A stretch of DNA of 64,000 nucleotides from Callorhinus ursinus. Its lineage: Eukaryota; Chordata; Mammalia; Carnivora; Otariidae. Of this stretch, positions 20,192 through 64,000 are shown one piece after another. The notes under the pieces are model-generated. The model was not told the origin of the DNA. It did no database searches and worked only from the letters and a program-made list of their open reading frames with translations. Each line of letters starts with the position of its first letter. Positions within the stretch are counted from its first letter, which is position 1. The stretch covers positions 6,671,812 through 6,735,811 of the forward strand of contig NW_020312968.1 in assembly GCF_003265705.1 (NCBI RefSeq), in the 5' to 3' direction. A program made the position numbers and the translations under genes.

Positions 20192-20536
<345 letters not shown>

Positions 20537-33408: not shown

Positions 33409-34097
<689 letters not shown>

Positions 34098-36210: not shown

Positions 36211-36730
36211 AAAATAAAGCTTATCCAATATTAATATGACCACTTCAGCTTTCTTTTTACTAGTTTAATACAGTATGTCTTTTTCCATCCTTTTATCTTT
36301 AACTTATGTATATCTTTATACTGAAAGTGCATTTGTTATAGGCAACATATAGTTGGATACTGAAATTTTTATCTAATCTGACAATTTCTAACTTTTAATT
36401 TGGGTATTTAGACCATTAATATTTAATGTGCATACCTACAAGTTTGTTTTGAAAGCTATCTTGCTATTTTTTGATTAATCTTCTAGTTTCTGCTTTTCCC
36501 TTTTTTCAGTCTTTTTTTGGATGAATTGACTTTTCCAGTATTACTATTTTATTGACTTTTATGGCCTATTATCTATAACTAGTTAAATACCACTTTACTA
36601 CTTAATATGGTGCCACAGAAAATTATATAAATAGAAAATTATATAAATACCATTTCATTTATAGTGTAAAATCTTATACCAGAATGTTTTCATTTCTTCT
36701 TTTCCAGACTTTATGCTGTTGTCACACATG

Positions 36731-37415
36731 TTTTTTTTTTTAATTTTTTATTGTTATGTTAATCACCATATATTACATCATTAGTTTTTGATGCAGTGTT
36801 CCATGATTCATTGTTTGTTCATAACACCCAGTGCACCATGCAAAACGTGCCCTCCTCAATACCCATCACCAGGCTAACCCATCCCCCCACCCCCCTACCC
36901 TCTAGAACCCTCAGTTTGTTTTTCAGAGTCCATCATCTCTCATGGTTCGTCTCCCCCTCTGACATACTCCCCTTTTCTTCCTCTCCTGTTATCTTCTTCT
37001 TTTCCTTTTTTCTTAAAATATGTTGCGTTATTTGTTTCAGAAGTACAGATCTGTGATTCAACAGTCTTGCACAATTCACAGCGCTCACCGTAGCACATAC
37101 CCTCCCCAATGTCTATCACCCAGCCATCCCATCCCTCCCACCCCCAACCACTCCAGTAACACTCAGTTTGTTTCCTGAGATTAAGAATTCCTCATATCAG
37201 TGAGGTCATGTGATACATGTCTTTCTCTGATTGACTTATTTCACTCAGCATAACACCCTCCAGTTCCATCCACGTCGTTGCAAATGGCAAGATCTCATTC
37301 CTTTTGATGGCTGCATAATATTCCATTGTGTATATATACCACAACTTCTTTATCCATTCATCTGTCGATGGGCATCTTGGCTCTTTCCACAGTTTGGCTA
37401 TTGTGGACATTGCAG
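36731..37415 (-). mobile_element. Young L1 3' part; probable inversion breakpoint element
   Basis: A poly-T start, then the reverse of the carnivore L1 3' UTR and the ORF2 terminal block, ending at 37,415 in the text for A-M-S-T-I-A-K-L-W. The 3' flank in L1 orientation is CATGTGTGACA (36,720-36,730). The 5' flank beyond 37,415 (AGGTCCTCTTTTTC) shows no matching copy, so this element lacks a target duplication of its own. Its missing copy is found at 63,693-63,708 in front of another L1 piece. Confidence 0.9.
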
Positions 37416-37846
37416 CAGGTCCTCTTTTTCTGTCTAGCTTCTTTCACTCAGCATGATCATTTTGAGATGCATATACATGCTGTTGTGTGTATCGGGAGTT
37501 TTTTCTTTATTATTGTCAATTAACATTCCATCGTAAGGATCCATCGCAGTTTCTTTATTCACTGGTTGATGGACATTGGGTCATTTCCAGTTTTGGTTGC
37601 TGTAATCATTCATGTAAAGTCTTTGTAGGGACATAAGCCTTTATTTCTCTCGGGTAAATATCTTAGAGTGGAATAGCTAGGTCATATAGTAAATGTCTTT
37701 AACTTTTTAGAAGTTGCCAGACTCTTTTCCAAAGATATGCCATTTCACACACCCACCCGCTGTGTATGAGAGTGCTGTTTCTTCCCATACCCAACCCTCA
37801 GTATAGCCAGGTTTTAAAATTTTAACCATTTTAATAAATGTGTCAT

Positions 37847-38043
37847 GGGGGGCACCTGGGTGGCTCAGTTGGTTAAGCGTCTGCCTTCGGCCCGGGTCAT
37901 GATCCTGGAGTCCCGGGATCGAGTCCCGCATCGGGCTCCCTGCTTGGCAGGGAGTCTGCTTCTCCCTCTGACCCTCCCCCTTCTCATGTGCTCGCTCTCT
38001 CTCATTCTCTCTCTCTCAAATAAATAAATAAAATCTTTTAAAA
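37847..38043 (+). mobile_element. CAN-SINE, full length
   Basis: Target duplication AAATGTGTMATG at 37,835-37,846 and 38,043-38,054. Confidence 0.95.
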
Positions 38044-38117
38044 AAATGTGTAATGATATCTCACTGTGGTTTTAATTGCATTTCCCTAATGACTAATGAT
38101 GTCAAGTGTCTCTTCTT

Positions 38118-38761
38118 TTTTATTTTATTTTATTTTTTTATGAACATATAATATGTTATTTGTTTCAGGGGTCCAGGTGTGTGATTCATCAGTCTTACAC
38201 AATTCACAGCACTCACCATAGCACATACCCTCCCCAATGTCCATCACCCAGCCACCCCATCTCTCCCACCCCCACCACTCCAGCAACCCTCAGTTTCCTG
38301 AGGTTAAGAGGGTTAAGAGTCTCTTATGGTTTGTCTCCCCCTCCAGTTTCAGCTTGTTTCATTTTTCCCTCCCTTCCCCTATCATCCTCTGCCTTGTTTC
38401 TCAAATTCCACGTATCAGTGAGATCATATGATAATTGTCTTTCTCTGATTGACTTATTTCGCTCAGCATAATACCCTCTACTTCCATCCACATCATTGCA
38501 AATGGCAAAATTTCAATTTTTTGATGGCTGCATAATATTCTCTTGTGTATATATATGCCACATCTTCTTTATCCATTCATCTGTTGATGGACATCTAGGC
38601 TCTTTCCATAGTTTGGTTACTGTGGACATTGCTGCTATAAATATTGAGGTGCATGTGCGCCTTTGGATCACTACATTTGTATCTTTGGGGTAAATACCCA
38701 GTAGTGCAATTGCTGGGTTGTAGGGTAGCTCTATTTTCAACTTTTTGAGGAACCTCCATCG
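38118..38761 (-). mobile_element. 5'-truncated L1 with intact target duplication
   Basis: Reverse young-type L1 3' UTR and ORF2 end. AGTGTCTCTTCTT occurs at 38,105-38,117 and 38,762-38,774, so both ends of this copy are original and it is not a breakpoint. Confidence 0.93.
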
Positions 38762-39868
38762 AGTGTCTCTTCTTGTGCTGATTTGCTATCATTATCTTCT
38801 TTGGGGCAATACCCATTTAAGTCTTTTGCACATTTTTTGGGGGGTTGTTTTCTTATTATTAACTTTTGAGGGTTGTTATATATATTCTATTATTTATTCT
38901 GATTATGAGTCCTTTTTCAGATATATGATTTGCAAATTTTTCTCCCAGTCTGTGATTATCTTTTCATTGTCTTAATGGGGTCTTTTGAAGAGCAGACACT
39001 TATAATTTTAATAAAGTCCAATTTATAAATCTGTTATTTTATGGATTAAACATTTGGTGTTACCTCAAAAAATTTCTGCCTAATCCATAGTCTTCTATGT
39101 TTTCCTTTAGACTTTTTATGTTTTTAGGTTTTATACTGGGTCTATGGTCCATTTTGAGTTAATTTCTGTATATGGTATAAGATGCAGATTGAAATTCTTT
39201 TTTTTAGTGTATATCCAATTGTTCCAACACCGTTTATTGAAAAGACTATTGTTTCTCCACTAAATTGTCTTTGCACCTTTGTTGAGAATGCTTTGACCAT
39301 ATATATATATATATGTGAGTCTATTTCTGATTTCTCTCCTGTTCCAGATGCTTGTGATAGCCTGTTGGCTTCCCAAGTTCCCTCTCTGTCTTGGGTCTTT
39401 CCCACAGCCTCTACCCATTCCCGGTATTTGTCAGTTTCCCCCAGATCAGCAATGGACTCCCACCATCATAAATGTCTTGTCTTATGCCTGGCTTCTGCAT
39501 GGGTATACCAGGTACTGGGGGTGGACTGAGGTATCTTGGTTTTAATTCCTGAAGTGAATGTGGCCTGATCAGGGCCTTCAAAGACAGGGCAAACAGATAT
39601 AGTCAGGAAGGTCCCTTTGGCACTGCAAATTGGATGCTTTCCCCCATGAGAATACAAGGTTTTTATCTCTCCAATACCAGAGAACATATTGGGCATTGAC
39701 ATCCTATAGTCAAACTCTGCAAACTTCTATCAGTGAATCCTGCCTTTGGGGAAGAGTATTCAAACCAGTACTGAGGGGAAACACCAAGTGGGTACCCCAG
39801 TGAAGAGTGGTAGCTGTCAAGCAATATAAATCGCCTGGGGGTATAAAGGAATAGAAAAAGCTATCTGA

Positions 39869-40069
39869 GGGGCGCCTGGGTGGCTCAGTTGGTTAAGCGA
39901 CTGCCTTCGGCTCGGGTCATGATCCTGGAGTCCCGGGATCGAGTCCCGCATCGGACTCCCTGCTCGGCGGGGAGTCTGCCTCTCCCTCTGACCCTCTTCC
40001 CTCTCATGCTCTCTATCTCTCATTCTCTCTCTCTCTCAAATAAATAAATAAAATCTTTAAAAAAAAAAA
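39869..40069 (+). mobile_element. CAN-SINE inserted in the ERV
   Basis: Target duplication AGAAAAAGCTATCTGAG (39,852-39,868 and 40,070-40,086), perfect over 17 nt, with a near-consensus body. A relatively recent insertion. Confidence 0.97.
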
Positions 40070-43000
40070 AGAAAAAGCTATCTGAGAACTGCACTGAATA
40101 AGTATTGTACGCCCTGCCCATAGTGTTTTCATTAGCCCAGTATGAATGGTAAAAGAAGGCAGATGGCTCATGGCAGTTGACTGTGGACTACGAAGAAATT
40201 AAACAAGGTGATGACCCCATCAAACAGCTGTGCCCCACATTGTATTTGTGACTCCAGAAGACACTACGGCAGAGACAACAGGAGAGAGTGTCCCTAGGAT
40301 TTTGGTCCCAGCCTTGGAAGGGGCAGAAACCTGATACAGTATCATAGAGGACAGCTCCTAGCTGTGTCCACAGCACTCCTCCAGGTAAAGCCTCTCGTGG
40401 AGCAACAGCAAGTCAAGGTAAGAACTTTCTTCCTTTCAAGGGATGGGTTGAGCATAGGTTCCATCAACCCCCTGCTGTGGCTCAAATTCCCGCTTTAAGT
40501 GCATGCCTCTTTGCAGCAGAGGGGCACCCTGTCCACCAGCCCACTGTCTCTAGAAATTCAGGTACTCTTGAGGATGTAGACCCTCCAAACGCCCCTGCTT
40601 CTATTCCTTTGGTGGCCCCTGCCGAGAGACAATGAAAGTTCCCCCTGATGCCAGGTATACAGATGGGCCTAGCAGGGGCAAGACACCCACATGCACTGCA
40701 GTCACTATTCAGCCCAACACTGACACCATCTGGTTGGAAGAAGGAATGAATCTCAGCAATCAATAGGCTGGACTTGGAGCGGCTTGGCTGGTGATTGATT
40801 ACTCACGCACTCTGACCATTAACCCTTTTCACTCATAGTTGGGCTATCTAAAAAAAGATTAACCTCATGGCTTGGACAATGGGAAGCCAAGGTGTCTATG
40901 ATCATGAATCCTCATGGGGCACCATACGTGGAAAGACATTGGGTTTGCCTGTGAGAGCCTGGGGCAGTCGTCCTTTTCCATATTCTGGCCCATAAGGCAT
41001 TGACACACCCTGGCAATCAGGCAGCTGATGCCTTCGCTTAGGCATAAGCCCTAGTAACTAACCCTTCAGTAGATACAGCAGATGGGGTACGCGGAAAGAG
41101 TAGCCACTGCAGTGCCCAAGTGGGATGACACATTGCCAAGGATGCTTCCTTGCCCTTGAAATACAGTGCCTTGGTCAATGCAGCAACAAACAGCGTGTCC
41201 TGTGTGACCTGAACAATGCCCAAGGCCACTACCAAAGGAGTCTGTGGGGTCATCCACTGGAGTTCTCAACCAGTGAGGGATTGGCAAATTGATTATATTG
41301 GCCCCCTGCCTCCTAGTAGGGATCCTAAATGTGCCTTGCTCTCTGAGTATGACTTATTTGGCCTAACCCAAGCTTTCCCCTGTTGCCACACAAGCCAGTC
41401 TGCCACCATTAGGGGATTAGAGAAACTGAGTACCACGTACGGATACCCTTGCTGAATAGACAGTGATCAGGGGTCACATTTTAAGGGTCATGATGTGCAA
41501 GACTGGGCAAAAGTACATGACATTGAACAAAGATTCCATTGCCCCTATAACTGCAGGCAGCAGGTTTGGTAGAAAGGAAAAGTCATGGTAAAGCAGCAGA
41601 TTAAATTACCAATAGGTTAAAACCACCTTGGCGGGGCAAACTAAAGTATTATCCCAGGCTTTGATACATTAGAATGATCAACTGGTAGGTCCTGTTGTCC
41701 TGTGTGCCAGACTGCGGACACCTGCTCAAACACACAACATTATAAATGTATGGAAGTTGCAGGAGATGTCATTGCCCCGACTCTCACTGTGGATCAATAT
41801 GCCATGCTGCTGAAAACACCAAGCCCCTTCACGCCAGGGAGAGATGTTATCTACTGAAATCTGCCGTAGGACATCCCACCCTGATGGGTGAGTTACCTTG
41901 TATCTCTGAGTGAGGAGGAATTGCTCAATCTCTACCAGGATCCCATTGTCCTGCTGCAAGCTGGACCTATGGAAACACACCCTACCTGGAATACAACATG
42001 CACCTTGGAAGGAGGCGGAAAAAGACAGGGGTGCTAGTCTGGCATATCCAACCCCCTGTCCACAGTGCTGCCTTCTATAACCAACATGCATGGTCAAGTT
42101 CCTAAAGCTACAAGCCCCAACATTAACTTCAAGAATCAGGCCACAGGTGTAATTCTTACAGAAGGGAAAGACCTTCCCATACAAGTTCATACTCAGTATC
42201 TGTCATTTTGACCTTAAACTTCTGCTGCTCCTGTGGTATCCAGTCACGGGCACCTGATAGAAATGTCTTTCTATGGTGGGTCCACTTGTATGCCCAACAA
42301 AGGAATCAGTCTAACTGCTAGAAATGTGGGCAGCTGCCCCTCTCTAGCTCTGCAGGACTGCTATGGTGGGTATCTCCCTTTCAGGTTGGGGATTAGAAGG
42401 CACTAAAGCAGTACATTAAGGGAGAACAAGCTAGGATTGGCACTCTTAATTCATGATATTACCAATACTGACCCAAACATCTGGTTTGTGGCACACAGTA
42501 TTAATAACATTGGACATGGGTATTTTTTTCTGTCAATCCGACTACACAGGCAGCCTGTCAAACTGCTCACCAGAGGGGTCCTAAAAAACCACCATCAGAG
42601 CCATGGGTAGCTACATTCAAATTTGGGATGGGGTCATATGGGTATTGAACTTTTGAGCACTCATGCGCTCCTATGTTGAGAACAGAAAAACCACTCTAAA
42701 CAGAACCTACCCAGTTGTACCAGGGATATAGACTGGATGTCACCAGAACTATGCAGTCATTCTGTCACATTAAAGGATATTGGCTGGTTTGGTAGTGACT
42801 GGTCATGCTGCTCAGGTATTGATTGGGTAGCCCCAGTTGGGTCTCAGTGGTTGTGTGGCACAAATCTTTGGCCATGGCTTTCATCTGGGGGGTTGGGCTG
42901 CTGCATCCTGGATTTTCCCAGGACACAAAGGAAAATCCACCTGACAACAACAAGAGTTGCCAACTTCCGTCTCCTCAAGGCCAGTGGTCATGTTCTGGGT

Positions 43001-43506
43001 TTTCCACTGGTACAATCATCTGGCCACCATCTTTATTCCCTATATTGACCTGGAGGACGTGATAACACAGATAGCAGCCCTTCTTAAATTCGCCCCACAA
43101 GCTTTAACGTGATAGCTGACAAAGCCTATCCTTACTGAACCCTGAAATGTCTCAAATGAGAAAAACTGTCCTCTGAAATAGGACGGCCTTGGCCATTATT
43201 GCTGCCTCACAAGGAAGCACCTGGGCCATTATCCATGCAAAACATCGTGTGTTCATAGCTGAGGAGTCTGCTCATGTATCCTCTTTATCAAAGCACATGA
43301 GGATACAAGCAAGCACCCTGAGTGATTTGACCCCCAGCCTAACAGACTCAATAAAGTCAGTGCTTCCGATCACAGGACTTTAGGTGGGGGGGGGGGGAGT
43401 TACTTACTTTGGGAATCATTGTCTTAATCTGTGGTACCTGCCTCTGGTATAATGAGTCACCTCCATGTGAATGAACCCCCGGCTGACCATTCAGGGCTCG
43501 CTGTGA

Positions 43507-43519
43507 AACAGGGGAAATA
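43507..43519 (+). other. Candidate retroviral polypurine tract
   Basis: AACAGGGGAAATA immediately before a TG that would begin the 3' LTR. This is the expected arrangement for plus-strand priming. Confidence 0.5.
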
Positions 43520-44240
43520 TGTCAGATCCCAAGAACCGGTCATAAGGGGTGGAGTGCTAGAGAAGGTCATCCAGAGGGCATGACTGCCGGTTGACCCTCC
43601 AGCTGGTCCCTGGCAATTGGAGGCTCCTCTCCCCCTCCCCTATCTTTGCAATGTACACTCTGCCCGCCATTCTCACGGCTGGAGCTGTTTTCAAGGACAC
43701 GGCCTCGAGAGCGCAATGCATTGTTGAGACCATTTGAACCCCATTAAGGCCTCCGTATGAACTGTGAAGATTCTGGCGGGCGTGTACAGAGATTTACTTG
43801 TCTCGAGGTCGCCCAAGACAAGCCTTGTAAGTACACTCCCTTGTTTTTTATAAAACTGCCACCTACAGGGGCTCCTGGGTGGCTCAGTCGGTTAATCATC
43901 TGGCTTTGGCCGGGCGCCTGGGTGACTCAGTCGTTAAGTGTCTTCCTTCAGCTCAGGTCATGATCCCAGGGTCCTGGGCTTGAGCCCCGCATCGGGCTCC
44001 CTGCTCAGCGAGGAGTCGGCTTCTGTCTCTTTGCTCCTTCTCTCCCCCACTCCCACCCCCGATCGTGCTGGCTCTCTCTCTCGAATAAATAAATAGAATC
44101 TTAAAAAACAAACAAACAAACAAAAACTGCCATGTACCCATCTTCAGTGCCCTCCCCTCTCCCGCCCCTCTGTGGACCTGGGCCTGTTTCAGGTTCACCC
44201 CAAGGAAGTCCAAGGTTTCAGACCAACATACCCACACCAT
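43520..44240 (+). mobile_element. ERV 3' LTR, interrupted by nested SINEs
   Basis: It starts TGTCAGATCCCAAGAACC. A TATAAAAC box lies at 43,848, just before the SINE pair, and GC-rich LTR-like text resumes at about 44,123 ('cccaaggaagtccaaggtt'). No matching 5' LTR is in the window, and the 3' border is uncertain. Confidence 0.5.
43868..44122 (+). mobile_element. CAN-SINE inserted into another CAN-SINE
   Basis: A first SINE head (43,868-43,911: GGGGCTCCTGGGTGGCTCAG through CTGGCTTTGGC) breaks off after 44 nt and a second complete head begins at 43,912 (GGGCGCCTGGGTGACTCAG). Host flanks AAAACTGCCA appear on both sides (about 43,851 and 44,125). Confidence 0.85.
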
Positions 44241-44249
44241 CAGCGGTGT

Positions 44250-44850
44250 TGATTTGTGTTTCTCTAGGTAAGATAGGGCCTTTCTTCATATGTCTGTTGG
44301 CCATATGTTTCCTTCTTTTGTGAAATAACCTTTTACGTTGTTGTTCGTTTTTTTCTTGGGTTACAGGCCATTTTATATATTTATGTGTGAAATGTTTGTT
44401 CAGATCTTTTGTCATTATTTTTTTTTCCCTTTGGGGTTCATGTCTTCTTGTCAAAAGATAGAGGTTCTTTGTTTTTATACTCTCATGAAGTGCTGTGTGA
44501 GATGTAAATCTACTTTAGTTTCTTCGAAACATCTTATGGTGAATAGAATTTTTTTATTTTAAAGTAGTTGAATCCATCTATTTTTAATGTTATAATTTCT
44601 GTCTTTAATATTTTGTTTAGTTTTTTTGTACAGTTTTCTGGATACAAGACTTGCAGAACATCTTTTGTTATTTTACTCATAAATTTATGATGGCTTTTAT
44701 TAGAATAGTGTTTAGAGTTATTTTATATATTCATATTTAATATAAATTAAATTACATATTATTTTCACCCTAGGTTAAATGTCCAATGATTTACAATAAA
44801 ATTTCTTGATGTCTTTATAAATTCTCAAGTTGAAGAACCATTCTGGGCAT
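44250..44850 (-). repeat. Old L1 fragment
   Basis: Reverse L1-like text, e.g. 'cttcatatgtctgttggcca' and 'cttcttttgtgaaa'. Heavily diverged. Confidence 0.55.
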
Positions 44851-44865
44851 CTTTATTTATTTATT

Positions 44866-45000
44866 TATTTATTTTTTAAAGATTTTATTTATTTATTTCA
44901 GAGGGAGAGAGAGACAGAATGCAAGCATAAGCGGGGTGGAGATAAGGAGAAGCAGACTCCCTGCTGAGCAGAGAGCCCCATGCAGGGCTCCATCCCTACT
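44866..45000 (-). mobile_element. CAN-SINE lacking its head half
   Basis: The tail (ATTT)n, GA-rich region and CAGGGCTCCATCCC are present, then the match stops abruptly at about 45,000 and non-SINE text follows. The tRNA-like head is absent, unlike every other full SINE here. Confidence 0.85.
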
Positions 45001-45824
45001 TTGGCTAGAATCTGCGTACTAGTCTTTATATGCAAAAAGGCTCAGATCTGTGCACCAATCCATCTGTGAAGCCAAAAGCTACTCTGGTGTAAATATGCCA
45101 TGGGGATCCATTTCAAAACACTGCTTCCTTTTGCCAAGGTCAGTGGCTATCACCGAAGTAACCAGAGAATGCCTGTGTCCTCACTCTCAAAAAGGCAGCC
45201 TCTTTTGCGACATTAAATTACAGCACTTTCTGTCCCTTTCTTTTCAACGGTAGAAATCTTTTTTTATCATTTTAAAGCAAAGATTGACCACCTTTAAATG
45301 AGAAGTTCTGATAAAGAGGAAAGTTTTAAAATTGTGTCCAGAAAGTAGCACCTTCCTCTCACAGCCAGTTTTATTGTCCAGGAGTTGAGAAAATAAATAC
45401 AATGTGTCCAGGTTTCCCCACATTGGAGACTGATGGCTAAGTTGAATGCTCTATAGTTTTGCTATTACACCCTAACTCCAGATGTAGGAGTATCTTGTTT
45501 ATTTCCTCATTTCTTTTACCAAGTACATTTGGTGGTCAGTATTTCTCAGTAAGAGTCCGTAAGAGTGCACTCACACTGCCCTCAGTATTTGTAGTTCTGA
45601 TAAAGCCCTAAAATGGAAGGGATTCAAAACAAGGCAGGCTAGCACATACATACTGGGCTGAAGCCAGATTTGCTTTGAATATAGCTTACACGATCAGTTT
45701 AGTTTTATTTCAAACGCAAGCCCCAAATACAACCCTTTTGACCTGAGTACTCCATCCCTAAATGGCAAACTAAACATTCATGAAAATTTAATGGCGAGGA
45801 AATTAGTACCTTCTTATGTTTCAG

Positions 45825-45971
45825 ACTGTGAAATGGCACCAGGGAGCACTTTCAGAGACAGGCAGAAGCGTGTGGATGTGCTGGACCAAACCTGAAACAT
45901 TTGTCCCTTCCACCTGTCATCCTTCATTAAGTCAGCTGGCTGCTAAGACACTCTGACAGGACACCGTCACG
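45825..45971 (+). other. TMC1: 5' UTR part of the TMC1 start-codon exon (inverted orientation)
   Basis: A strong acceptor, TACCTTCTTATGTTTCAG, ends at 45,824 and is followed by 147 nt of non-repetitive DNA up to an ATG. Together with the donor after 45,987 this defines a 163-nt internal exon on the plus strand. Human TMC1 likewise has non-coding upstream exons, so an acceptor before the start codon is expected. Confidence 0.65.
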
Positions 45972-45987
45972 ATGCCACCCAAGAAAG
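45972..45987 (+). CDS. TMC1: TMC1 first coding exon, 16 coding nt, on the wrong strand
   Basis: ATGCCACCCAAGAAAG followed by GTATTT encodes M-P-P-K-K plus one base. Human TMC1 begins M-S-P-K-K with 16 coding nucleotides before the first coding intron (c.16, from memory of the splice-variant c.16+1). Joined in phase to the 23,754-23,801 exon, the last base makes the Val codon that exon needs. A at -3 gives a fair initiation context. The other TMC1 exons are on minus, so in this assembly the piece cannot be spliced to them. I found no equivalent start exon on minus between 23.8 and 64 kb. The inversion inferred from the L1 breakpoints (36.7 and 63.7 kb) explains the orientation. The alternative is a chance exon-like sequence; the length, peptide, phase, acceptor and donor together make that unlikely. 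Confidence 0.75.
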
Positions 45988-48900: not shown

Positions 48901-49589
48901 AGATTCTGTTATTTATAGTTAGAAGCTGCCTTTTGCTAAAAATAGTGCTCCTAAATGCTTTAAATGAATTAATGTTTGTGAAGGCCACTTGTAAACCCTG
49001 AAATGACATGCAAAATGAGGGTGGCGATCATTGTCATGTTGTTACACTGTTGTTTGGTCAGATGCTTTTATCCCCAACAATGCAAAATAAACCCCGGCTC
49101 TGCTTATACAGCTTCTTCAAGGTTCTAAATTTGTGATGCTCATATAGATGATGTCTTACTATATTTAAAGATGAATAGACAGCATTTCCTAAAGAGATAA
49201 ATAATATATATAGAAGTGTTAGAGTTATAAATTATCATAGAAATTCCTTCTATTCATTCACTTATTTATTTGGTCACTTCAACGAACAATGCATTTGATT
49301 CTTTTCATGTGCTCTGGGAAGAATGTGATGTGGCAGAGTTATCCTTCTCAAAGAGTTTATAGATTAATATATTCGGGTCAGTGCTGAACGGTTGTCGGAA
49401 CAAAACCAGAATCAAAACATTGCTTTACAAGGTACAGAGGGCCTTTAAAAATTAGGAACATTGATGCATTTGTTTCTCACTGGGCCTGTGATTTCAGGAT
49501 TTCTCTGCAATGGACAGCACTTCTTGGGTTTGAAATGCCCATCAGTGTTGACCAACGGATGATAAGGGAATGATAAATTATTGACACTC
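45988..49589. other. Intronic sequence with no gene seen
   Basis: Single-copy-looking DNA. A faint reverse MIR piece at 47,640-47,700 ('gtgcctatgacatgctaggc') is the only repeat I can suggest. Short open frames at 46,187, 47,768 and 48,433 do not resemble known proteins. Confidence 0.6.
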
Positions 49590-51517: not shown

Positions 51518-51536
51518 TAGTTGCAATCAAATTTTT

Positions 51537-51737
51537 TTTTTTTTAAGAGAGAGAGAGAGAGAGAGAGTACCCCCCGTGCCAGTTGGGGAAGGGGCAAAGG
51601 GAGGGGGAGAGAGAATCCCAAGCAGTCTCTCCGCCCAGGGAGAGTCCGATGCCGGGCTCAATCCCATGGCCCTGAGATCACAACTTGAGTTGAAATCAAG
51701 AGTCAGATGCCCAACTAACTGAGCCACCCAGGTGCCC
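51537..51737 (-). mobile_element. CAN-SINE
   Basis: Target duplication TAGTTGCWATCAAATTTTT (51,518-51,536 and 51,738-51,756) with one mismatch. The GA-run is a simple (GA)n. Confidence 0.95.
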
Positions 51738-51756
51738 TAGTTGCTATCAAATTTTT

Positions 51757-52760
51757 AAAACATTTTTGGCCATTATTTCCTCACTTTTTTCTGACTCCCC
51801 CTTCTGGAACTTCAATTACATATATGTTAGATAATTTAATTTCATCCCACAGGTCAGAGATGCTCTTCCATTTTTTTTTTTAATCTTCTATTTTACTTCT
51901 TTCATTTTGGGTAAAATCTCTGTCTTCAAATTTGATGCTCTTACCTTCATCAATGTCAAATCCGCTGTTGATTGCATCCAGTGTATTTGTCATTTCAGAT
52001 ATCCTATTTTTCATCTCTAGAGTTTGATTTATATTTTCACAATATTTTTTATTTTTTCACATCATGTTCTTAAGCACATGGAGTGTATTTATTTGCTGGT
52101 TTACTATTAATGTGTGCTAATTCTATCATCTATGACATTTCTGGCATTTCTGTGTCTATTGATTCTTTTCATTGCTCTCTTGGTTGGGAGGTATTCATTT
52201 CCCAACTTCTTTGTCAGCCCGGTGATTATTTTATTTGCTGTTGGAGATGTTGAATTTTACATTTTTGGGTCCTGGGTTCTTTGGTATTCCTTTAAATATT
52301 GTCGGATTATATTCTGGGATGCAGGTAAGTTACTTCAAATTAGCTAGATACTTCTGAGATTTGATCTTCAGCTCTGTTAGGGTGAGCTCAGGGTAGATTT
52401 AGTAGATTTAACTTGGTCTAGGCAATGACTTTCTAAGGGCTCTAACCAATGCTCCATGAACTAGGAGGTTTCTCCTCCCTGCCTAGTGGAAAACCTCAAC
52501 TGTTCCTGTCTCTTGTGAGCTCCAGAAATTATTCTACCTACTCTTTTATTTCTGGTATTTCACCTCACACATTCTAGCTACTTTGGGCTCCCTGAAAACA
52601 GAACTATGTCCCCTCAGCTCAGTGAGACCATAAGCCTCTGTTTGGGTCCCCCTCTCTATGTTGCAGCCTAGAAACTCCTTAGGCATAGTGATCAGGCCAT
52701 GTCAGGGCTCATCTCATTTGCTCCCTTTCTTTCCAGGATCACTGTTTTGGGCTGTCTGTT
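51757..52760 (-). mobile_element. Old L1M portion, continued
   Basis: Continuation of reverse L1 text ('aattacatatatgttagata', 'cccacaggtcagagatgctc', 'gatatcctatttttcatctc') after the SINE. It fades out at about 52.4-52.8 kb. Confidence 0.6.
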
Positions 52761-55737
52761 CAGCAATTCCACTCTTGTCTGATGTCTTTATAGGTCTTGG
52801 AGAGACTTAAAGAAGAGTCATGAAGTCCATAACCTTTACTAAGTGAGAAATTAAAAGGATCAAAACCAAAATTGCCCTAGACAATGACACATACCCCTCT
52901 GAAGAAGCCAAATCTCTAAGGCTTTTCCTCCTGTGACATATTCCACAATGATTGCTCCAATTTGGAGAAATTTATCCATAATATTAACTAATTATCTCAT
53001 GCTAGTAGGTGAGAATTCTTCCTCTTCTTCTGGTTATGGTATGGAGAGAAGTCAGTTCCCATCAATGCAGACATTCATAACAAATTATTAAATTGTTCTC
53101 TTAGTCCCCGGTGTATGAATAGGCTGTGTACCTTCAATTTTAGCTCATTTAACACAATATTTATTGTTTATTGAATACAACAAAAAACATGATGTCGAGA
53201 AGCTCAGAAGCTTTTGGGGGAAAATGAGACAAAGACAGAAAATATTAAAAAACAGCATAAGACCATAATGAGAAAGATGTTTGGATGGAGGATATGAAGT
53301 GTCAATTGAATTGTAGAGGCAATACATACTATGTGCTTTTTCTCATTTCCAACTCTTTAATCTTCTTTTATGGCTCTCTAGGGAACATTCTTCAATTTAT
53401 TCTGACCATTCCTTAGCTGCTGAGCTGAAACATTCAGAAGATATGAATTTGATGAGTTCTGAGTATATTCTGACTGCTAGCATTCTGTCTATGCATCCCA
53501 GACCTGCACTTGTTCTTATCAGCACATCATAGTATTATCTCTTGGCATTGTGGGTCGTGGAACAAATGTTGGGATCATGCAGGCCTGAGTTTGGATCTTT
53601 GTTACCTTTGCAGCCTTTAGATCTTGAGAGGGTGTATTAGTTAAGGGCGATTTCGTTGAAGACAACATATTCCAGCTTAGCTAGCTCAAGCTACAAGATA
53701 GCAGGGGGTGACTCATGGAACTCAAAGGCAAGAATGAAATTGAGTCTCAAGCTCAGATAGAACCTGAAAATGTGGCACTCTGGGAAATATGCTTCATTCT
53801 TCTTTCTGGCTGCGTATGGTTTTCTCCCTCCTGTAGTAGACATGACAGGTAAGGCCAAGGCCAAGAGTGACCAAAGCCTTCATTTTCTCAGCCATGTGGG
53901 TGACAACATATGTGTATGTTTATGTCAGGGTACAGTTCACAGAAAATGTCGGGGAGGTGGTAGAAAAGTTCCCATAAAAGCAGAGTAACTGGGAGAATAA
54001 AACGATGATTACTCTCCATAACGAATCATTTCACCTCTTTTAGTTCAACTTACTTCTATATAGGAGGTCCTCCATAAATATTAACTCTCTTCTCCCTGAC
54101 TTTCTTTCTAGTCAGTTTTCATTCTCTGTCCTAGACAATTTTCTGCTAAGAGTGGACAAGATGTACTGCCCACAAATAGGAATATGTCTTGATAAAACAA
54201 GTTACATTTCCGTAATTTATCAAGGCAAGGATTCATATATTCCTCCTGGGTCAAATTGATGCTGTGGAAAGTAACAGAGATTGGTTTTGAAGATTCTTCA
54301 CCCAAGAAGGTTGCCAGCTGGGGTGAGGATTATGTAGATACAGAGGCTGCGTGTGGTGTGAACTCCTGGGCTGTCCTTTGGGTATTGCAAACGGCCCTCA
54401 GGAAAATGCATTAACCAAGTCAAGAAACCATAGTGTGAGGATTCCCTCAGGGCAAAAGGGATGGTTTTTGAAGAACTCACAAATTTCCCCATGCAATGGC
54501 CATGGATGGCCACAAGAAGACATGGTAGCCACTAAGTGTGAGTAAAGATACTTAACTTTTTGTCTTTCTAATACTCGTTCTACTATTCTAGGCAAGAACC
54601 AGAAGCTACATAGTGAGTAGAAAAGGAGGCATAGGTCATGAGAAGTGGTCAAAGATATGCTTCCATTTCCTTCCCCACTTAGGTCTCCAGGCCTCAGTTG
54701 TTGGCATGAATGAGGAGAGGGGAGAATCTTTGAATAGGCTGTGAGATTGCAGTTTTAACTTAGACTGGACTGGGTATTTTAATACCTTACTACCAGAAAA
54801 TGGGTATGAATGATCAAAGTGAGGTGGTTCTTATAACTATACAACCTATGGAATCTGTCTAAAATATTATCCAGGGCTGGGAAAATGAAATCCAATGGAG
54901 CCTGATTTAAGGTAGCATTATATTTACCCTTTAATTAAATGATCTACACTTATTGAAGTGAATATAGTTATAATTAGTAGGGCACATAGTAGATTTTGAT
55001 AGAAATACTCAGTTCTTTCTCTTAAGGGAACTAGTTAAACCTTTAAGCAGGACAGCCAAGGAATTGCTTAGAGGGTGGTATGGCTCATCCACCATTCTCT
55101 GTGCTCCATTCTGCTCCTGGCCTGATCTTAGCTGAGATCTCTAGTTGCGATTCTTCTTACTAATAACCTATGACCAAGAGTTCGCAATCTTTGCTTTCTA
55201 ACTGTGAGAATGACTTCATGATGCTGCAAGTTCTTCTCTACTCCTGAGTACTGATGTTCTGTCTTCTTCCTCATGTCCTCCTTGAAGGGGAAGGTGGTCT
55301 ACACACTGTGTAGATCGAAGAGGACTTTCTCCCCCTTTGATGTTAATGCTATTTTCTGCTTAAAGTCTTAACTGGAAATGGGTCCCTCGTTTATGCCACA
55401 CCATGACACTTTGAGTAATAAAGAATTAAACAGCCTTCTCAGCAACAGTCACTGTTTTGTTTTTCTTGCACTTCATAGCCAGCATTGTGTGCAAGTTAAC
55501 ATTACAAAGCCCAAGCCTTCACATATGATGATTTTGTGAAATGGAATTCTCAACTTCAAATATATTTCCTTTTTGCTGAACCTCCTGACTTGCGTTCAGG
55601 TCAGTTCTCCTGTTCTTAAACATCTGGTTTTTGAGAAGCGGTGACCAGTACAATAAACTCTCTTCCCCCAGTTCTATCCACCTTAAAAAATTATTGGACT
55701 CAAAGAAGGAAAGTCTTCTTGCCTTTCTGCCCTCTCC
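52761..55737. other. Intronic sequence with no gene seen
   Basis: No exon or clear repeat. The stretch around 53,640-53,900 reads like an old interspersed repeat that I cannot classify. Confidence 0.5.
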
Positions 55738-55755
55738 CCAAACACACAGTTTTTT

Positions 55756-56540
55756 AAAAAAATTTTTATTGTTATGTTAATCACCATATATTACATCATT
55801 TGTTTTGGTGTAGTGTTCCATGATTCATTGTTTGTTCATAACACCCAGTGCTCCACGCAGAATGTGCCCTCCTCAAAACCCATCACCAGGCTAACCCATC
55901 CCCCCACCCCCCTACCCTCTAGAACCCTCAGTTTGTTTTTCAGAGTCCATCATTTCTCATGGTTCGTCTCCCCCTCCGACTTACTCCCCTTCATTCTTCC
56001 CCTCCTGCTATCTTCTTCTTTTTCTTTTTTCTTAAAATATGTTGCGTTATTTGTTTCAGAGGTACAGATCTGTGATTCAACAGTCTTGCACAATTCACAG
56101 TGCTCACCGTAGCACATACCCTCCCCAATGTCTATCACCCAGCCACCCCATCCCTCCCACCCCCGACCACTCCAGCAACCCTCAGTTTGTTCCCGAGATT
56201 AAGAATTCCTCATATCAGTGAGGTCATATGATACATGTCTTTCTCTGATTGACTTATTTCACTAAGCATAACACCCTCCAGTTCCATCCACATCGTTGCA
56301 AATGGCAAGATCTCATTCCTTTTGATGGCTGCATAATATTCCATCGTGTATATATACCACCTCTTCTTTATCCATTCATCTGTCGATGGACATCTTGGCT
56401 CTTTCCACAGTTTGGCTATTGTGGACATTGCTGCTCTAAACATTGGGGTGCACATACCCCTTCGGGTCCCTACATTTGTATCTTTGGGGTAAATACCCAG
56501 TAGTGCAATTGCTGGATCGAATGGTAGCTCTAATTTCAAC
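55756..56540 (-). mobile_element. Very young 5'-truncated L1
   Basis: Reverse carnivore L1 3' UTR and the ORF2 terminal block, truncated at the text for [25 protein letters not shown] occurs at 55,738-55,755 and again from 56,541 with no mismatch. The element is about 785 nt and the terminal ORF2 frame is open (56,210-56,540). Confidence 0.95.
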
Positions 56541-57214
56541 CCAAACACACAGTTTTTCAGAGCTCCAGAGTTTCTATGACTCCACATGAAAGATTTTGCA
56601 TATAGATACATCTCAGTAATACTCACCTGTGGAACACTTCTGAAATAAATGTATTCTAGTCTTTAATACCTTCCTGTCAAGGATCTTCTTGCAAAACTGT
56701 CTCCTGGACCCTGCAGGTGAGGACTTGTAAGTTTCAGTCAAAATGTGAAACAGCCCAGGATTCATGCCCTTCCCCATATTATGATAATACAATGTGATCT
56801 AGGATCCAGTCCTCCAAAGCTCTCTGACTTCCACCTTTTATTTTAGCTTCCTTTCATGGAGGTATCTGAGTTTCTCATAAAATTATCAATACAATATTTT
56901 CACACTCCAGTGTAAATTATTGGTAGCTAAAAGAGTGCTTTGCAGTTTGCAGCTCTGGCTCATTTTTTAGCCTTGCCTAATTCCTACAGTATCATCCGTT
57001 ATGTCCCCTCCTTCATCGGAAAGCTTAGTTGGTTTTACATTGTTCTCATGTAATGTTTAGACTCCCCAGTCTGGTGTCTCATGGGCTTTTGCCATTTGAA
57101 CTTAGTCTTATTTTAAATTCATATCAAACCCCTTTGATCTACTTTCCATTTCCGGCATATTGAACACGTTTTTCCAACCTCTATGTTTTATTTTTTGGGA
57201 GTAATCACCTTAGC

Positions 57215-57380
57215 TCCTCTCAGTTTTTGCTCATCATTTTCCTATCCATCCTTCAAGGCTCAGTTGATAACCACCTCCTCTGTGATGTTTTTCTGGATTT
57301 CCTCAGTAAGACATAATTTCTTTCTCTTCATATTTCATGTGGCATTAAATATTCATCACTTATATATTACTCTTCTCCAA
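57215..57380 (+). repeat. L2 LINE 3' fragment
   Basis: 'catccttcaaggctcagttg' followed by 'accacctcctctgtgatg' and 'ttctggatttcctcagtaag' is typical of the L2 3' region. Orientation is as I recall the consensus. Confidence 0.65.
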
Positions 57381-57759
57381 GTGCTTTGGAGTGGATGTTA
57401 TTTGTGTCCTTTATACAGCTGCTGACTATTTTTTCCAAATATTGACATACTTGGCCAGATCTTTTTTTTTTTTCAATTTGTGAGTTTCTTTATATAATAT
57501 TTTAAATACACTTATAAAATTAAATTGTATTTTGTTAGGTTGTGAGCTTGAAAAATTTCAAGACTGAAGTGAGCTTGTTGTGGCCAATTGGCTAGTTGCT
57601 AAACTGATGGTTTGTGTTTGCTGGACAACACATTATTGCCTTAGAGAAAATTTACATGGGGAAGCAGATTGCAATGCACATGTTGCTTGGAGAGCCAGTG
57701 AAAAGACTTGAGGGATATTTCAGCCAGGTCTGATGGAGCATTCCAGTTTTGCCAGCAGA

Positions 57760-57788
57760 AACACACACACACACACACACACACACAC
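57760..57788. repeat. (CA)n microsatellite
   Basis: About 14 CA units. Confidence 0.95.
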
Positions 57789-57856
57789 TGGAATGGCTTG
57801 TCTTCTCCAGGATTTGTATCTCTTTAACTGGATAATGTTTAATAAGCACTAACATT

Positions 57857-58046
57857 GGGCACCTGGGTGGCTCAGTTGATTAAGCGACTGCCTTCGGCTC
57901 AGGTCATGATCCTGGAGTCCTGGGATCGAGTCCCACATCTGGCTCCCTGCTCAGCAGGGAGTCTGCTTCTCCCTCTGACCCTCTTCCCTCTCGCGCTATC
58001 TCTCATTCTCTCTCTCTCAAATAAATAAATAAAATCTTTAAAAAAA
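57857..58046 (+). mobile_element. CAN-SINE, recent
   Basis: Perfect 16-nt target duplication AATAAGCACTAACATT at 57,841-57,856 and 58,047-58,062. Confidence 0.97.
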
Positions 58047-58062
58047 AATAAGCACTAACATT

Positions 58063-61000
58063 ATTTCTTCTTTGACTTCCCATTTTCTGTGCCTCTTTTT
58101 CTGATCACTTTCTCTTTGACCCCTTTGTTTTTTACGTTTATTAATACTACCATTTTGGCTATTTATTCTGCTTTAGGAGCCACTCTGTCTCCTTAGGAAG
58201 GTTTTGCATGTGTCAGATCCCGTCTTTTATGTTTTGATGTTTAATAGCACTCAAAAGTTTTGGATTTCTGTTTTTTGGTTTTTTTTTTAATATTAGAGTG
58301 TGCTCACTTACTAAGCTACATAATCAACACTTTCTTGCTTTTTTCTTGCTTTTTTAATAAAGAAAAATAGAAAATTCTGCAATAATATATTATAGTTTGC
58401 AAAACATTTGTAACCAGGACTCTTCCAGAAACTCAGGATGTATCATCCTGTCACTAATTACCCTGGAAGCTCTGGGAAAGCAGGGACGTGGCAGACTTTT
58501 AATACTGTATATCCCCTACTGCAACAAGAATAGTTAAGACCTTGTAAATATTTATTGAGTGAATGGCCAACTATAAAGCATAGGTGCAGGCATAATGGGT
58601 GAGGGAAACTAGGTTTTTTAAGACACCTCCTGAGACCTGCTTTCAGGTTGTATAAGAGGAGGTAATTATAGTCTGGGACTTCACTCCCTGTTCTTAGCTC
58701 ATGCTTGCAGGAGGCGTTAGAAAAGGAGCTTGGCCTCTGGTACTATTTTCCTCTGTAGGTTATATGGAAGCAAAGGCAGGACTTAAGGAAGTAGGTCTAT
58801 TTTTAGACTCAGTGACATATTTAAATAGGTTGCAATAGAAAGTAGTGCAAAGATATTTCACAGGTAGAATATCACATCCCGGGTGCTTTAACACTGCATT
58901 CAAGTGACCTGTGATGGGATGGGTAGAAGCATCTGTAAACTGAAATAAGTCACTGTGAGCTCCTCTTTGTAACCTACGACTCCGGCAGTGGGTGACTCAG
59001 GCTGTGGGGTCAGGAGACCTGGGTGTTATGTCTAGCACCATGATGCCACTTTAGTTTACAGACTTGGAGATTAATCTAATGAACCTTCAGTAGTTTTCTT
59101 CATTAAAAAAAAAATCTGTCTAGTTTTTTGTTCCCCCATAAATTTCTGTTGGTCTATGTCCAAATGTTGGTGAGGGCGCTAGATCCTCGTGAGCTAGCAG
59201 CACCGATTGTTAGGAGGGGAAATTATCCCACTCATGAGTGAGTGACATTTGCTTTCCCTGTGAGGAAAAATGATCTGCATAATGCTGGGTAGAAGTAGGG
59301 AACACAGCCTGCGGTTCCCTCCGATGACCTTGATCCTCTGCAGTTGCATCTCCTCTGGATGGAGGGATGGGCTGTTTGAGGGACAGAGCTGCCAGCCTGC
59401 ATGAACACTAGAGCCAAAGATGGCAAATTTAAAAAATCAGAAATTTCAAGGGGAAAGATTTATAATAGCTACACTAAGAAGTATGTTGATATTGAGAGCT
59501 CTGAGAGGTCCAGTGAAGGAAAATAGAGGATCTTCTCTAAGAAAATTATGAAAGAGCCCCACAGAAGCAGTCCTAACCTAGTCTGGCAAATCTCGACTCT
59601 CTCTGTGGCTTGTGCCTCCTTCTTCCATGTGACTTTGCTCATGGTACTCCTTCCTCTTGGAAAATTTTCCTGTGCTAATCCAAAGCCCCCAAGACTCAGG
59701 GGAAAATGTGCTAAGTCTGAGACTAGAAGGAAGTTTCTGTGTGATATCCCTTTTGTTCATTCATGGCTTGGTTCATCCATCCATCCATCCATCCATTTAT
59801 TTACTCATTCCTGTCACAAATGTTGGCTGAGTGCTTACTCTTTGTCAGGCACTAAGGAAGAAGAGTTGAAGATCAACCAAGGCCCCGTCTTCCTGGAGTG
59901 TGCTTGCTTGTGGGGAAAATAAATAGTGGATCAATGAACAACTAACTAGATAACAGAAGGCCATGTGGTGACGGGGTTAGGAAGAAAATTAAAGAAGGGT
60001 GAGAGAGCTAGTGATGACATAGTTTTTGGATTCTTTGTCGGTCCAGCTGCACTTGCCCCTCAGTGAGATGGACCGGCGAGGGAAACTTGGCAGAGCTGAC
60101 TTTGAGTTTAGGGTGGTTTTTCACCCCATGTCTCTCCCTCCGGTCTCTAAGATCTGCAGCTGAAGGCAGCTCCTTCTCTCTTTGTTGCCACTTCACTGCA
60201 TTGTTTGGCTCGGATGAACCAGAAACCTCTTTTCTTTTTCTCATGTTCACAGTGTTGTAGAAATCGCCCATCTGTCCATGTTCCTGTTTTCCTTTTGTTT
60301 TATGCATCTACACCTTCTAAGATCCCTTCACTACCACGTACAGTCGGATCTTGGGATGTTTTAAAGACAAGTGCATCTATACAATCCACCACATCTAAAT
60401 GGGTTCATCCACTTAATCTGTTTAAGACTGAGATAACAACACAGCCATCACTCAATGGGCTGTCCTTCCTCTTGGCCGATTCTATTTCTTTTTTAGAGAT
60501 TCATTTTAACTGTCAGAGTTGTCCACATGGAGCATCCAATAATTTGTCAATTACAGTTTCGGTTTTCCTCCCTAGTAACAGTTCCCACAGCGGTTTCTGC
60601 TTGTGCATTTCTGGCCTGGTAAGCTGTTTTTGTTTCTGCCTGTCTGTCTCTCCAATTCTGGGGGCAACGGTTTTCCCTGGGAAGCTCAATTCTCCAACAG
60701 AGCTAAGAAGAGTTGATTTTCAGTTTGTTCAGCTTTTCTTTTATAGGATGGGAGTGATGGCTTGAGTGGATTAAAAATTGCCATTGTTACAGGGCTAGGA
60801 AAATTTTTATGTATGAAAATGGCTATAACCTTACACTGAGTACAAATAATACTTAAAAGCATGTGAAGATGTGATCATCTGTGATGTTACTTATTAAAAA
60901 AAAGTATACATATCTTTTGAAGTGTTGAAAGGAAAATAGTACTTTATATGCTTTATAGCATCACTTTTTGTAAGTATAGAATATATTCTTGTTTATGTAT

Positions 61001-61384
61001 CCGTGTTCTGTTTTGTAGCCTTAAGAACTATTTTGAATGTATCTGAGTATATGAAACAAGAGTAAATGTCCTATGTGACGTGATGCTGCATTATATATAA
61101 AACTGTGTATATAAATTTTTAAAAAAAGTCTTCATACATCTAGAGACTCAGTTTAAGTCTACATGCTCTGACCATTTCAGCTCCTTGGGATGTCTTCCCT
61201 TTCTTGGCTTCTACCTTTCATAGTAAATATTAGGATGCTCAATTATATTTCACCTACAACAGCTGTTTTATTTGCACATATCTTGTCCTGTAGCTAGTTG
61301 GGGACCTCTTGGAATGAAAAGAGAATATCTTACTCACTTATAGCTGCCCAGATTTTATTGGATGAATATAGATTTGAATGCCTT
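58063..61384. other. Intronic sequence with no gene seen
   Basis: Contains a (CCAT)n stretch near 59,774-59,797 and a faint L2-like piece at 59,590-59,760. The 186-codon frame at 60,205-60,765 has no recognisable domain, and I do not call it a gene. Confidence 0.55.
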
Positions 61385-61560
61385 CCATATGCTCAACACT
61401 GCTGTTTTACTTCATGATCACATCACTTCTATGAGATAATTTGTTTTCATGATTTGTTGAAATGAAATCTGATCCTCAGGGGGGGTTACAAATTTGCCTG
61501 TGGTTACTCTTTTTGAAGTGGCCGAGCTAGGTTTTGAATTCAGGTCTGTTTGATTCTAAG
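61385..61560 (-). repeat. MIR SINE
   Basis: Reverse MIR: 'tatgagataatttgttttca', 'tgaaatctgatcctcag', 'gccgagctaggttttgaatt', 'caggtctgtttgattctaag'. Confidence 0.7.
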
Positions 61561-62649
61561 AACAAGACGGTGCTCCTTCAACTATAAAAAGCCATACTTA
61601 GTGCTTTGTCTCATAGACACAAGTGTATTCTTGTTGACTGAGTGAATTAGTGGATGAATTCTCTGTACCTCCTTTCTACTTACTGTTTCTCTTCTCTGTA
61701 AAACGATCATGGAAGGAACCTGACCTAAGAATCAAATAGTCCACTGAGGTCTCTTAATTTGGCAACCAAGAGAAGGTAGAGTTCATTAACTAAAGCTCTC
61801 TCCCATCAATTTTCTTTAAACTTCCAGAATGTTTCAGAAGCATTTTCCTGAGTTCCATTACAAGGTGGAACATTTTAGCCATTACCGAAGACAGCACTAT
61901 TAACATTTTATGAGTTGGCTCCTTTCTTCCTAACACTGTGAGAATAAAACATTGTTTGCTAAATTCTGGCTGCTCAATTCCTATTTTTTCATGACGTTTT
62001 ATAATCTCGGCCTTCATTATAGGAACATATGGGTATGTTTATTGCTGCAAGACCAAACAAAAGAGTGCCTGAGATCCTAGGAGACGTGGCTAAGCAGTAA
62101 TCTTTGACTTTCTGTAGCTTTCCATTAAAATTATCTCTCATTTTTTATCTCCTTAAATTTCATTCTTAGAAATAAAAACAAGAACACGAGTTAGTCTTTT
62201 TAAACATAATACACATCTATTGTATAATTTGAAAAAGAAAAGATCCAAAGAGGAAGAAAATCTCACAATCTTACCATCCAGATACGGTTGCTAACATTTT
62301 GGCATATTTCATCTCACTCCCTGCCCTCCCTCCCACTATCTTTGCATAAGGCATTTATTTGAGATATATAGATACATAGAATTTTAATAATCTTTTTGCA
62401 CAATATAGATTGTAAACACTTCTGCTTGTCATTAAAATATTTATAAACATTATTTCTACTTAGTGGATTCATAGTAAATTGATATAACTATTCTCTCAAA
62501 ACTGGTAATTCCATGTCGAATTGCCTGGAGATAATTGGGTGTGAAACCAAAAGAAAGGAATAGGAGGCAGCCAGAGTTCTTGACCCATATTTTTTCTCAT
62601 GTACTGGAAAAAAAAAAAAAAAAAGAACTCAACTTAAGACACTTATGAA

Positions 62650-63706
62650 ACATTTAGAATGAATAAATTCCTCATGGTCAGGATGGAGTACACATACTGA
62701 ATTTACTCTTTATGTGAAACAAATAAAAATGGACAAAACATATGAAATAACAAATTGCAAGACATTATACCTCAGACAACAAAGGAGAGTAACCTCTGAG
62801 AGATGGAAAATAAATGAGGTTTATTGCCACAGCTGACTGTCTAGCGGGTTTCCAGATCATAGTACAGGGAGGGGGATGTGAGTAGAGACTAGTGAGCTGC
62901 CAGAGTTGAGGAGATAGAGCTGAGAGTTTGGGGAGATTAAGTCAGCTAAAATGCCCAGGGAAGTGTCCCAGAGAAGGGAAAGCTGAACAGACAGAGAGTT
63001 CTGGAGATCTGCATAGTGTTCTTACTGCGTCTTCAATTGACTAATGATCAGTGTATTCACGTGGCTGGGAATGAACCACCCTGTAGGATTAGAGGGAACA
63101 ATCCCTAGAGCTCATACAGGCTGGGAGTTTCCTCCTCCCACCAGCAAGAGTATAAAACCTTATAATTCGTGGGATGCCATGTAGAGTACTCAGAAGGTGT
63201 TTGCTTCAGCAATAGGAAAATATTAGTCCTAGGATAAACATTGCTTTGGTCTTACTAGCAACTTAAAAGTGAGATCTTAAATGATAAAACTGATTCCAGG
63301 TAACTTAAATGCATATCAGAACAAAGCTAAAGAATATTTATGGGAATATAAAAATACCTAGCACCCAATAAGGAAGAATTCGTAATGTTTATCATGCAAT
63401 CAAATATTACCACTAATGCAGAGAAGCATGAAAATACCCATAGTTAAGAGAAAAATCAATTAAACATAATCATCCTATAATTGACACTGTTGATATAATT
63501 GATATGCAAACAGTTATGAAATTGTGTTGTATGTATTCAAGAGGCTAATGGAAAAATTGAGTAGAGACATAGATGAAATTAAAAAGACAAAATTCACCTT
63601 CCACAGATGAAAAATGCAATGTGGGAGATGAAGCATATGCTTTATGGATTAGCGTAAGGTTAGACATTGCAGAAGAAAAGATTATTGAACTTAAAAACAT
63701 GTGTGA
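62650..63706 (+). mobile_element. Old L1M 5' region and ORF1 (5' part of a split L1M)
   Basis: Text such as 'gagaaaaatcaattaaacat' and 'gtattcaagaggctaatgg' belongs to the L1M 5' region. 'gatgaaaaatgcaatgtggg', 'gacattgcagaagaaaagat' and 'tattgaacttaaaaacatg' belong to ORF1. It stops at TGTGTGACA, where a young L1 begins. The sequence that should follow (ACAACAGCATAAAGTCTGG) lies reversed at 36,730 and below. Confidence 0.75.
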
Positions 63707-64000
63707 CACCGTCAGAATGGCTAAAATTAACAAGTCAGGGAACGACAGATGTTGGCGGGGATGTGGAGAAAGGGGAACCCTCCTACACTGTTGGTGGGAA
63801 TGCAAGCTGGTGCAACCCCTCTGGAAAACAGTATGGAGGTTCCTCAAACAGTTGAAATTAGAGCTACCGTTCGATCCAGCAATTGCACTACTGGGTATTT
63901 ACCCCAAAGATACAAATGTAGGGACCCGAAGGGGTACATGTACCCCAATGTTTATAGCAGCAATGTCCACAATAGCCAAACTGTGGAAAGAGCCAAGATG
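63707..64000 (+). mobile_element. Young L1 5' junction, running off the window; probable inversion breakpoint element
   Basis: Starts at about CGTCAGAATGG in ORF2 and is open through the Cys-rich block [18 protein letters not shown] to the window end. Its 5' flank AAAAACATGTGTGACA (63,693-63,708) matches, inverted, the 3' flank of the L1 at 36,731. The last 41 nt are identical to the reverse complement of 37,369-37,410, so the two pieces overlap in L1 sequence. Confidence 0.92.

What the first reader, a model, noticed from the sequence alone, without database searches (positions are those of the whole stretch)
36720..64000. About 26 kb inversion bounded by two inverted young L1 elements
Seen: the L1 at 36,731-37,415 (-) has 3' flank CATGTGTGACA, reading on minus from the poly-A, and no matching 5' flank. 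The L1 at 63,707 (+) has 5' flank AAAAACATGTGTGACA. These are the two target-site copies of one insertion, now 27 kb apart and in opposite orientation. A chance match of 11 non-poly-A bases at exactly these two junctions is very unlikely. Inference: recombination between two oppositely oriented young L1 copies (or a misjoin across them) flipped roughly 37.4-64 kb, leaving two hybrid elements. The L1 pieces overlap by at least 41 identical bases, as expected for a crossover between homologous copies rather than a clean cut.
Basis: partly seen in the sequence, partly recalled or inferred. Interest (0 to 1): 0.92.

Follow-up and report, generated by a model that had tools for sequence, protein, structure and literature searches.

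The report
Inversion between two inverted LINE-1 copies
A stretch of about 26,000 DNA letters in a mammal genome, near the start of a gene that looks like the hearing gene TMC1, was most likely flipped end to end by recombination between two jumping-gene (LINE-1) copies; this is a known kind of event, here with an unusually clear molecular trace.

Summary
The minus-strand L1 at 36.7-37.4 kb has CATGTGTGACA after its poly-A and no copy at its 5' edge. The plus-strand L1 at 63.7 kb is preceded by AAAAACATGTGTGACA. Two other young L1s in the window have paired target-site copies, so the test works here. Independent support: both flanks belong to an older L1, and un-flipping 37.4-63.7 kb joins its ORF1 side to its inter-ORF/ORF2 side in the right order and strand. 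All 5 of 26 related loci that carry both parts show that order. A second contig, probably the other haplotype (99.83% identical), has the same arrangement, and no further close copy of either flank was found, so a misjoin or an inverted duplication is unlikely. Best reading: a retrotransposon recombination-mediated inversion (Lee et al. 2008) of about 26.3 kb, lying 5' of the first coding exon found of a TMC1-like gene. It is a known kind of event and a well-marked new example.

The parts
36720..36730 (-). 3' target-site copy of insertion A (CATGTGTGACA on the minus strand)
36731..37413 (-). Left young L1, 5'-truncated, poly-A at its left end; inferred hybrid (A 3' end, B 5' end)
   Evidence: hybrid nature inferred
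37414..37429 (-). 5' flank of the left L1, AAAAAGAGGACCTGCT: inferred 5' target-site copy of insertion B
   Evidence: its partner was not read
37414..63708 (.). Inferred inverted segment (about 26.3 kb; the true ends lie at the unplaced crossover inside the L1s)
63181..63700 (+). ORF1-side part of the older L1 that hosted insertion A
36230..36719 (-). Inter-ORF region and ORF2 start of the same older L1 (ORF2 endonuclease N-terminus near 36,447)
63693..63708 (+). 5' target-site copy of insertion A (AAAAACATGTGTGACA), preceded by TT as at L1 nick sites
63709..64000 (+). Right young L1, 5'-truncated, runs to the window end; inferred hybrid (A 5' end, B 3' end)
   Evidence: hybrid nature inferred
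55753..56540 (-). Control: young L1 with paired target-site copies AAAAACTGTGTGTTTGGG
38115..38764 (-). Control: L1 with paired target-site copies AAGAAGAGACACT

Best explanation
Two young, 5'-truncated L1 copies, A and B, lay head to head in opposite orientation about 26 kb apart. A sat in an older L1 that already carried an internal deletion. Recombination between A and B inverted the segment between them. The left L1 now has A's 3' target-site copy on one side and B's 5' flank on the other; the right L1 has A's 5' target-site copy. Shown: A's two target-site copies are separated and inverted; un-flipping restores the order of the older host L1; the arrangement is on two homologous contigs. 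Inferred: both L1s are hybrids, the event was non-allelic homologous recombination, and the present orientation is the derived one.
For: Target-site copies in register with one L1's poly-A and the other L1's 5' edge. Controls with paired target sites. Older host L1: of 26 related loci, 5 (L022, L032, L034, L037, L041) carry both the ORF1-side and the ORF2-start part, and in all 5 the ORF1 side is upstream on the same strand. TGTGACA at the end of the 63.7-kb copy lines up with inter-ORF sequence, not with ORF1. Second contig collinear over 64,009 aligned bases, 80 mismatches, 20 gaps. Each flank has a single 100% place per contig. Known precedent (PMC2603318).
Against: The reciprocal target-site copy of B was not seen. 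A third 11-mer lies in the window by chance. The un-flipped older L1 needs a private deletion of about 0.7-0.8 kb whose join falls inside the 16-bp target site, and no other scored copy shows that join. 21 of 26 loci carry only one of the two parts and do not bear on order. Inter-ORF similarity is weak.
Confidence: 0.84

Rival explanations
1. Assembly artefact: the assembler flipped the segment between two inverted L1 copies.
For: Inverted repeats at both ends are where such errors arise (established knowledge). Reads and assembly method were not available.
Against: The same structure stands on two contigs that differ by 80 mismatches and 20 gaps over the window; at the left L1 they differ only by one base of poly-T in the 901 bases compared. 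The shared inverted sequence is under 1 kb, while the contigs are 19.88 Mb long.
Confidence: 0.06
2. Insertion-coupled inversion: two L1 insertions happened at the same time, and the 5' end of each cDNA was joined to the other site. No recombination between resident copies took place.
For: It would give the same swapped target sites. L1 cDNA bridging distant breaks is described in tumours (PMC7058536, passages). The two L1s are of similar, moderately young age: K2P 0.045 (667 bp) and 0.034 (150 bp) to the 55.7-kb copy.
Against: It needs two coincident insertions and two cross-joinings. Recombination between resident L1s is the documented route between human and chimpanzee (21 L1 cases, PMC2603318).
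Confidence: 0.06
3. Coincidence: two unrelated L1 insertions whose flanks happen to match, each with a lost or altered second target-site copy.
For: The 11-mer occurs once more in the window.
Against: Anchored 11-base identity has probability 3.3e-6 per pair of sites, and both flanks are parts of the same kind of older L1 in the predicted order and strand.
Confidence: 0.02

Closest known systems
Retrotransposon recombination-mediated inversion, L1 type (L1-RMI), Lee et al. 2008, PMC2603318
   Same: Two oppositely oriented L1s at the two breakpoints; target sites no longer match within an element; L1-RMI size is similar in order (human-specific mean 14,294 bp); about half of the reported RRMI events involve exonic or intronic regions.
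   Different: Found from one genome by target sites and a host repeat, without an outgroup; not in a primate; the reciprocal half is unread; the host L1 gives a second line of evidence.
L1-L1 homology-mediated structural variants in humans (PMC12350158, passages only)
   Same: Truncated L1 copies as substrates of homology-driven rearrangement.
   Different: The passages seen on L1-L1 events concern deletions and insertions, not this kind of balanced inversion.
L1-retrotransposition-mediated rearrangements in tumours (PMC7058536, passages only)
   Same: L1 sequence at rearrangement junctions, with endonuclease-type motifs.
   Different: Somatic. The passages seen describe deletions, translocations, duplications and fold-back inversions with one L1 bridging the breaks, not a balanced inversion with an L1 at each end.

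Membership tests
L1-RMI | Elements of one family span both breakpoints in opposite orientation | tested here: met
   Minus-strand L1 at 36.7 kb and plus-strand L1 at 63.7 kb, both aligned to the 2.5-kb L1 copy.
L1-RMI | Target sites do not match within the element but match across the two elements (insertion A) | tested here: met
   Left L1 own-flank score 0; cross match AAAAACATGTGTGACA.
L1-RMI | Reciprocal target-site match of the other insertion (B) | not testable with these tools
   The sequence needed is withheld. In the rest of the genome the 15-base B flank occurs at the junction on both contigs and at five other places; none of the five shows an L1 3' end in the 90 bases before it.
L1-RMI | Chimeric elements with a mappable crossover | not testable with these tools
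   The two L1s overlap by only 41 identical bases in the window, and no pre-recombination copies are available.
L1-RMI | Orientation differs from an outgroup | not testable with these tools
   No relatives of this genome are held.
L1-RMI | Not an inverted duplication | tested here: met
   Each flank has one 100% place on each homologous contig; the next best scored hit is 70% (40 of 876 candidates scored).
Insertion-coupled L1 rearrangement | Each L1 is a single cDNA inserted at the time of the rearrangement | not testable with these tools
   Needs a relative with the un-flipped state, or the full right-hand L1.

The most novel reading that the evidence does not exclude
A balanced germline inversion made by two simultaneous L1 insertions whose cDNAs were joined crosswise, leaving swapped target sites without recombination between resident copies, in the 5' region of a TMC1-like gene.
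Probability: 0.06. Interest if true: 0.7.

Novelty: new member of a known kind. Interest (0 to 1): 0.34.

Why it matters
Swapped target-site copies reveal an inversion and its derived state from one genome, without an outgroup, and here the host repeat confirms it independently. The segment lies 5' of the first coding exon found of a TMC1-like gene, so it may have moved regulatory sequence or untranslated exons; that is a suggestion only. As a mechanism it is known.

Tried and rejected
The 63.2-63.7 kb translation had no L1 match in the PDB (one lipocalin hit, E=0.68) or in Pfam. The 36.7-kb side gave only a weak L1 endonuclease match (E=0.003) and no L1 family in Pfam. The 20.2-kb exon had no PDB match. 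Exons as a test of the flip: three TMC1-like exons were found, all left of the segment, so they do not test it. Mismatches between the two contigs are unremarkable: 43 of 80 lie inside 37,416-63,708. The 36.7-versus-63.7 row was dropped, since it aligns beyond the true 41-base overlap. A local-alignment scan of 15 inter-ORF copies gave z from -1.2 to 8.9; in 3 of 15 (L028, L036, L042) the best alignment was not collinear with ORF2. It served only to choose copies. Pooled Pfam scanning of the segment failed and was not replaced, so coding content was not surveyed fully. Paper searches listed no report of this inversion; one of them named Carnivora and listed 3 papers. I saw listings only, apart from the four papers cited with call numbers.

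Full report
What is there. The window lies on contig C127 of a 2.67-Gb genome of 1504 contigs. At 36,731-37,413 on the minus strand is the 3' part of a young L1. At 63,709 on the plus strand another 5'-truncated young L1 begins and runs to the window end. The left L1's poly-A is followed by CATGTGTGACA; its 5' edge abuts AGACAGAAAAAGAGGACCTGCT, which holds no such copy. The right L1 is preceded by TTGAACTT-AAAAACATGTGTGACA, which has the look of an L1 nick site and target-site copy.

Controls. Two other L1s of the window have both target-site copies: AAAAACTGTGTGTTTGGG at 55.75-56.54 kb, and AAGAAGAGACACT (then one mismatch) at 38.1-38.76 kb. Of 19 element entries with a readable 3' flank, 8 have an exact own-flank match of 8 or more bases after leading As; the 36.7-kb L1 scores 0. 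The entries were made by script (16 SINE, 4 L1), and two near 43.9 kb may be one SINE. Of 361 pairings of different elements, 6 reach 10 bases; five are T-run/A-run matches at one SINE and the sixth is this pair. Against the reading: the 11-mer occurs a third time, at 20,453, with 0.07 expected. The 16-mer has 7 places in the searchable genome, 4 of them this pair on two contigs; the reversed control has 3.

The host repeat as an independent test. Left of 36.72 kb lies an older L1 on the minus strand: a stop-masked translation matches the L1 endonuclease N-terminus (PDB 7n8s, E=0.003), which puts ORF2 about 275 bp on. Before 63.7 kb lies ORF1-side sequence of the same kind of L1, on the plus strand. 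The two flanks, joined as the un-flipped site, were searched in the genome (40 of 876 candidates scored). Among the 26 loci compared, 5 carry both parts (L022, L032, L034, L037, L041), and in all 5 the ORF1 side is upstream on the same strand; 4 carry only the ORF1 side and 17 only the ORF2 start. Five longer stretches around ORF1-side copies were then taken (the C33 copy was left out as the near-identical partner of C34): 2 of 5 show both parts in that order (these two are L022 and L032 again), 3 of 5 show no ORF2-start part in 8 kb, and two of those three contain some N. Compared with L022, L032 and L037 (SINE lengths subtracted), the un-flipped element lacks about 0.83, 0.71 and 0.79 kb between ORF1 and ORF2, so it had an internal deletion; no other scored copy spans that join. 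In an alignment with six copies, TGTGACAACAGCATAAAG lines up with inter-ORF sequence (clearest in L037), while ORF1 similarity ends near CAT (blastn ends at 63,700 in L022 and L032). So the copy at 63.7 kb ends in bases that belong with the sequence now at 36.7 kb, as a single pre-insertion site demands. That the deletion join falls inside the 16-bp target site is a coincidence that I cannot explain further.

Misjoin and duplication. Contig C128 matches the window end to end: 64,009 aligned bases, 99.83%, 80 mismatches, 20 gaps. At the left L1 the two contigs differ by one base of poly-T in the 901 bases compared. That C128 is the other haplotype is an inference. Each flank has one 100% place per contig and no other close scored copy, which speaks against an inverted duplication.

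Not tested. The sequence that would show the second L1's other target-site copy is withheld. In the rest of the genome its 15-base 5' flank occurs at the junction on both contigs and at five other places; none of these shows an L1 3' end in the 90 bases before it, judged by eye. No relatives are held. The crossover cannot be placed.

Mechanism and kinship. Lee et al. 2008 (PMC2603318: abstract, first part of Results, Discussion and Methods read; [quoted passage not shown] They report 21 L1 cases among 252 human-chimpanzee inversions. Here the orientation criterion and one half of the target-site criterion are met. Two simultaneous insertions joined crosswise would leave the same target sites; tumour work shows L1 cDNA bridging breaks (PMC7058536, passages). 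I rate that at 6%. The L1s are moderately young: K2P to the 55.7-kb copy is 0.045 for the left (667 bp) and 0.034 for the right (150 bp).

Setting. Three stretches matching a recalled TMC1 N-terminus lie on the minus strand at 23,749-23,811, 20,192-20,362 and 12,134-12,259 (E=6e-5, 9e-32 and 2e-20). The flipped segment begins more than 13 kb 5' of the first of these. The TMC1 query found no convincing exon inside the segment; other coding content was not surveyed fully.

Verdict. Most likely a real inversion between inverted L1s: a new member of a known kind.

Noticed in passing
23749-23811, 20192-20362, 12134-12259 (-): Three coding exons of a TMC1-like gene (query recalled from memory); the inferred inversion lies 5' of them.
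   Followed up: partly
33736-34083 (-): Frame-broken, intronless-looking copy of dynein light chain roadblock (best PDB match 1y4o, E=7.7e-28; two frames), probably a processed pseudogene inside the older L1.
   Followed up: partly
36719-36720 and 63700-63708: The join of a private 0.7-0.8 kb internal deletion of the older L1 falls inside the 16-bp target site of the young L1.
   Followed up: partly
20453-20463 (-): A third CATGTGTGACA, without an L1 beside it.
   Followed up: yes
contigs C127 and C128 (also C42/C43, C33/C34, C955/C959): The held assembly carries near-identical contig pairs at several places, so it seems to hold both haplotypes in part.
   Followed up: no
L059 around its match: One genomic copy of AAAAGAGGACCTGCT follows AAGAAGCCAGACCC, much like the left L1's 5' flank, so that flank may itself be older repeat sequence.
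   Followed up: no
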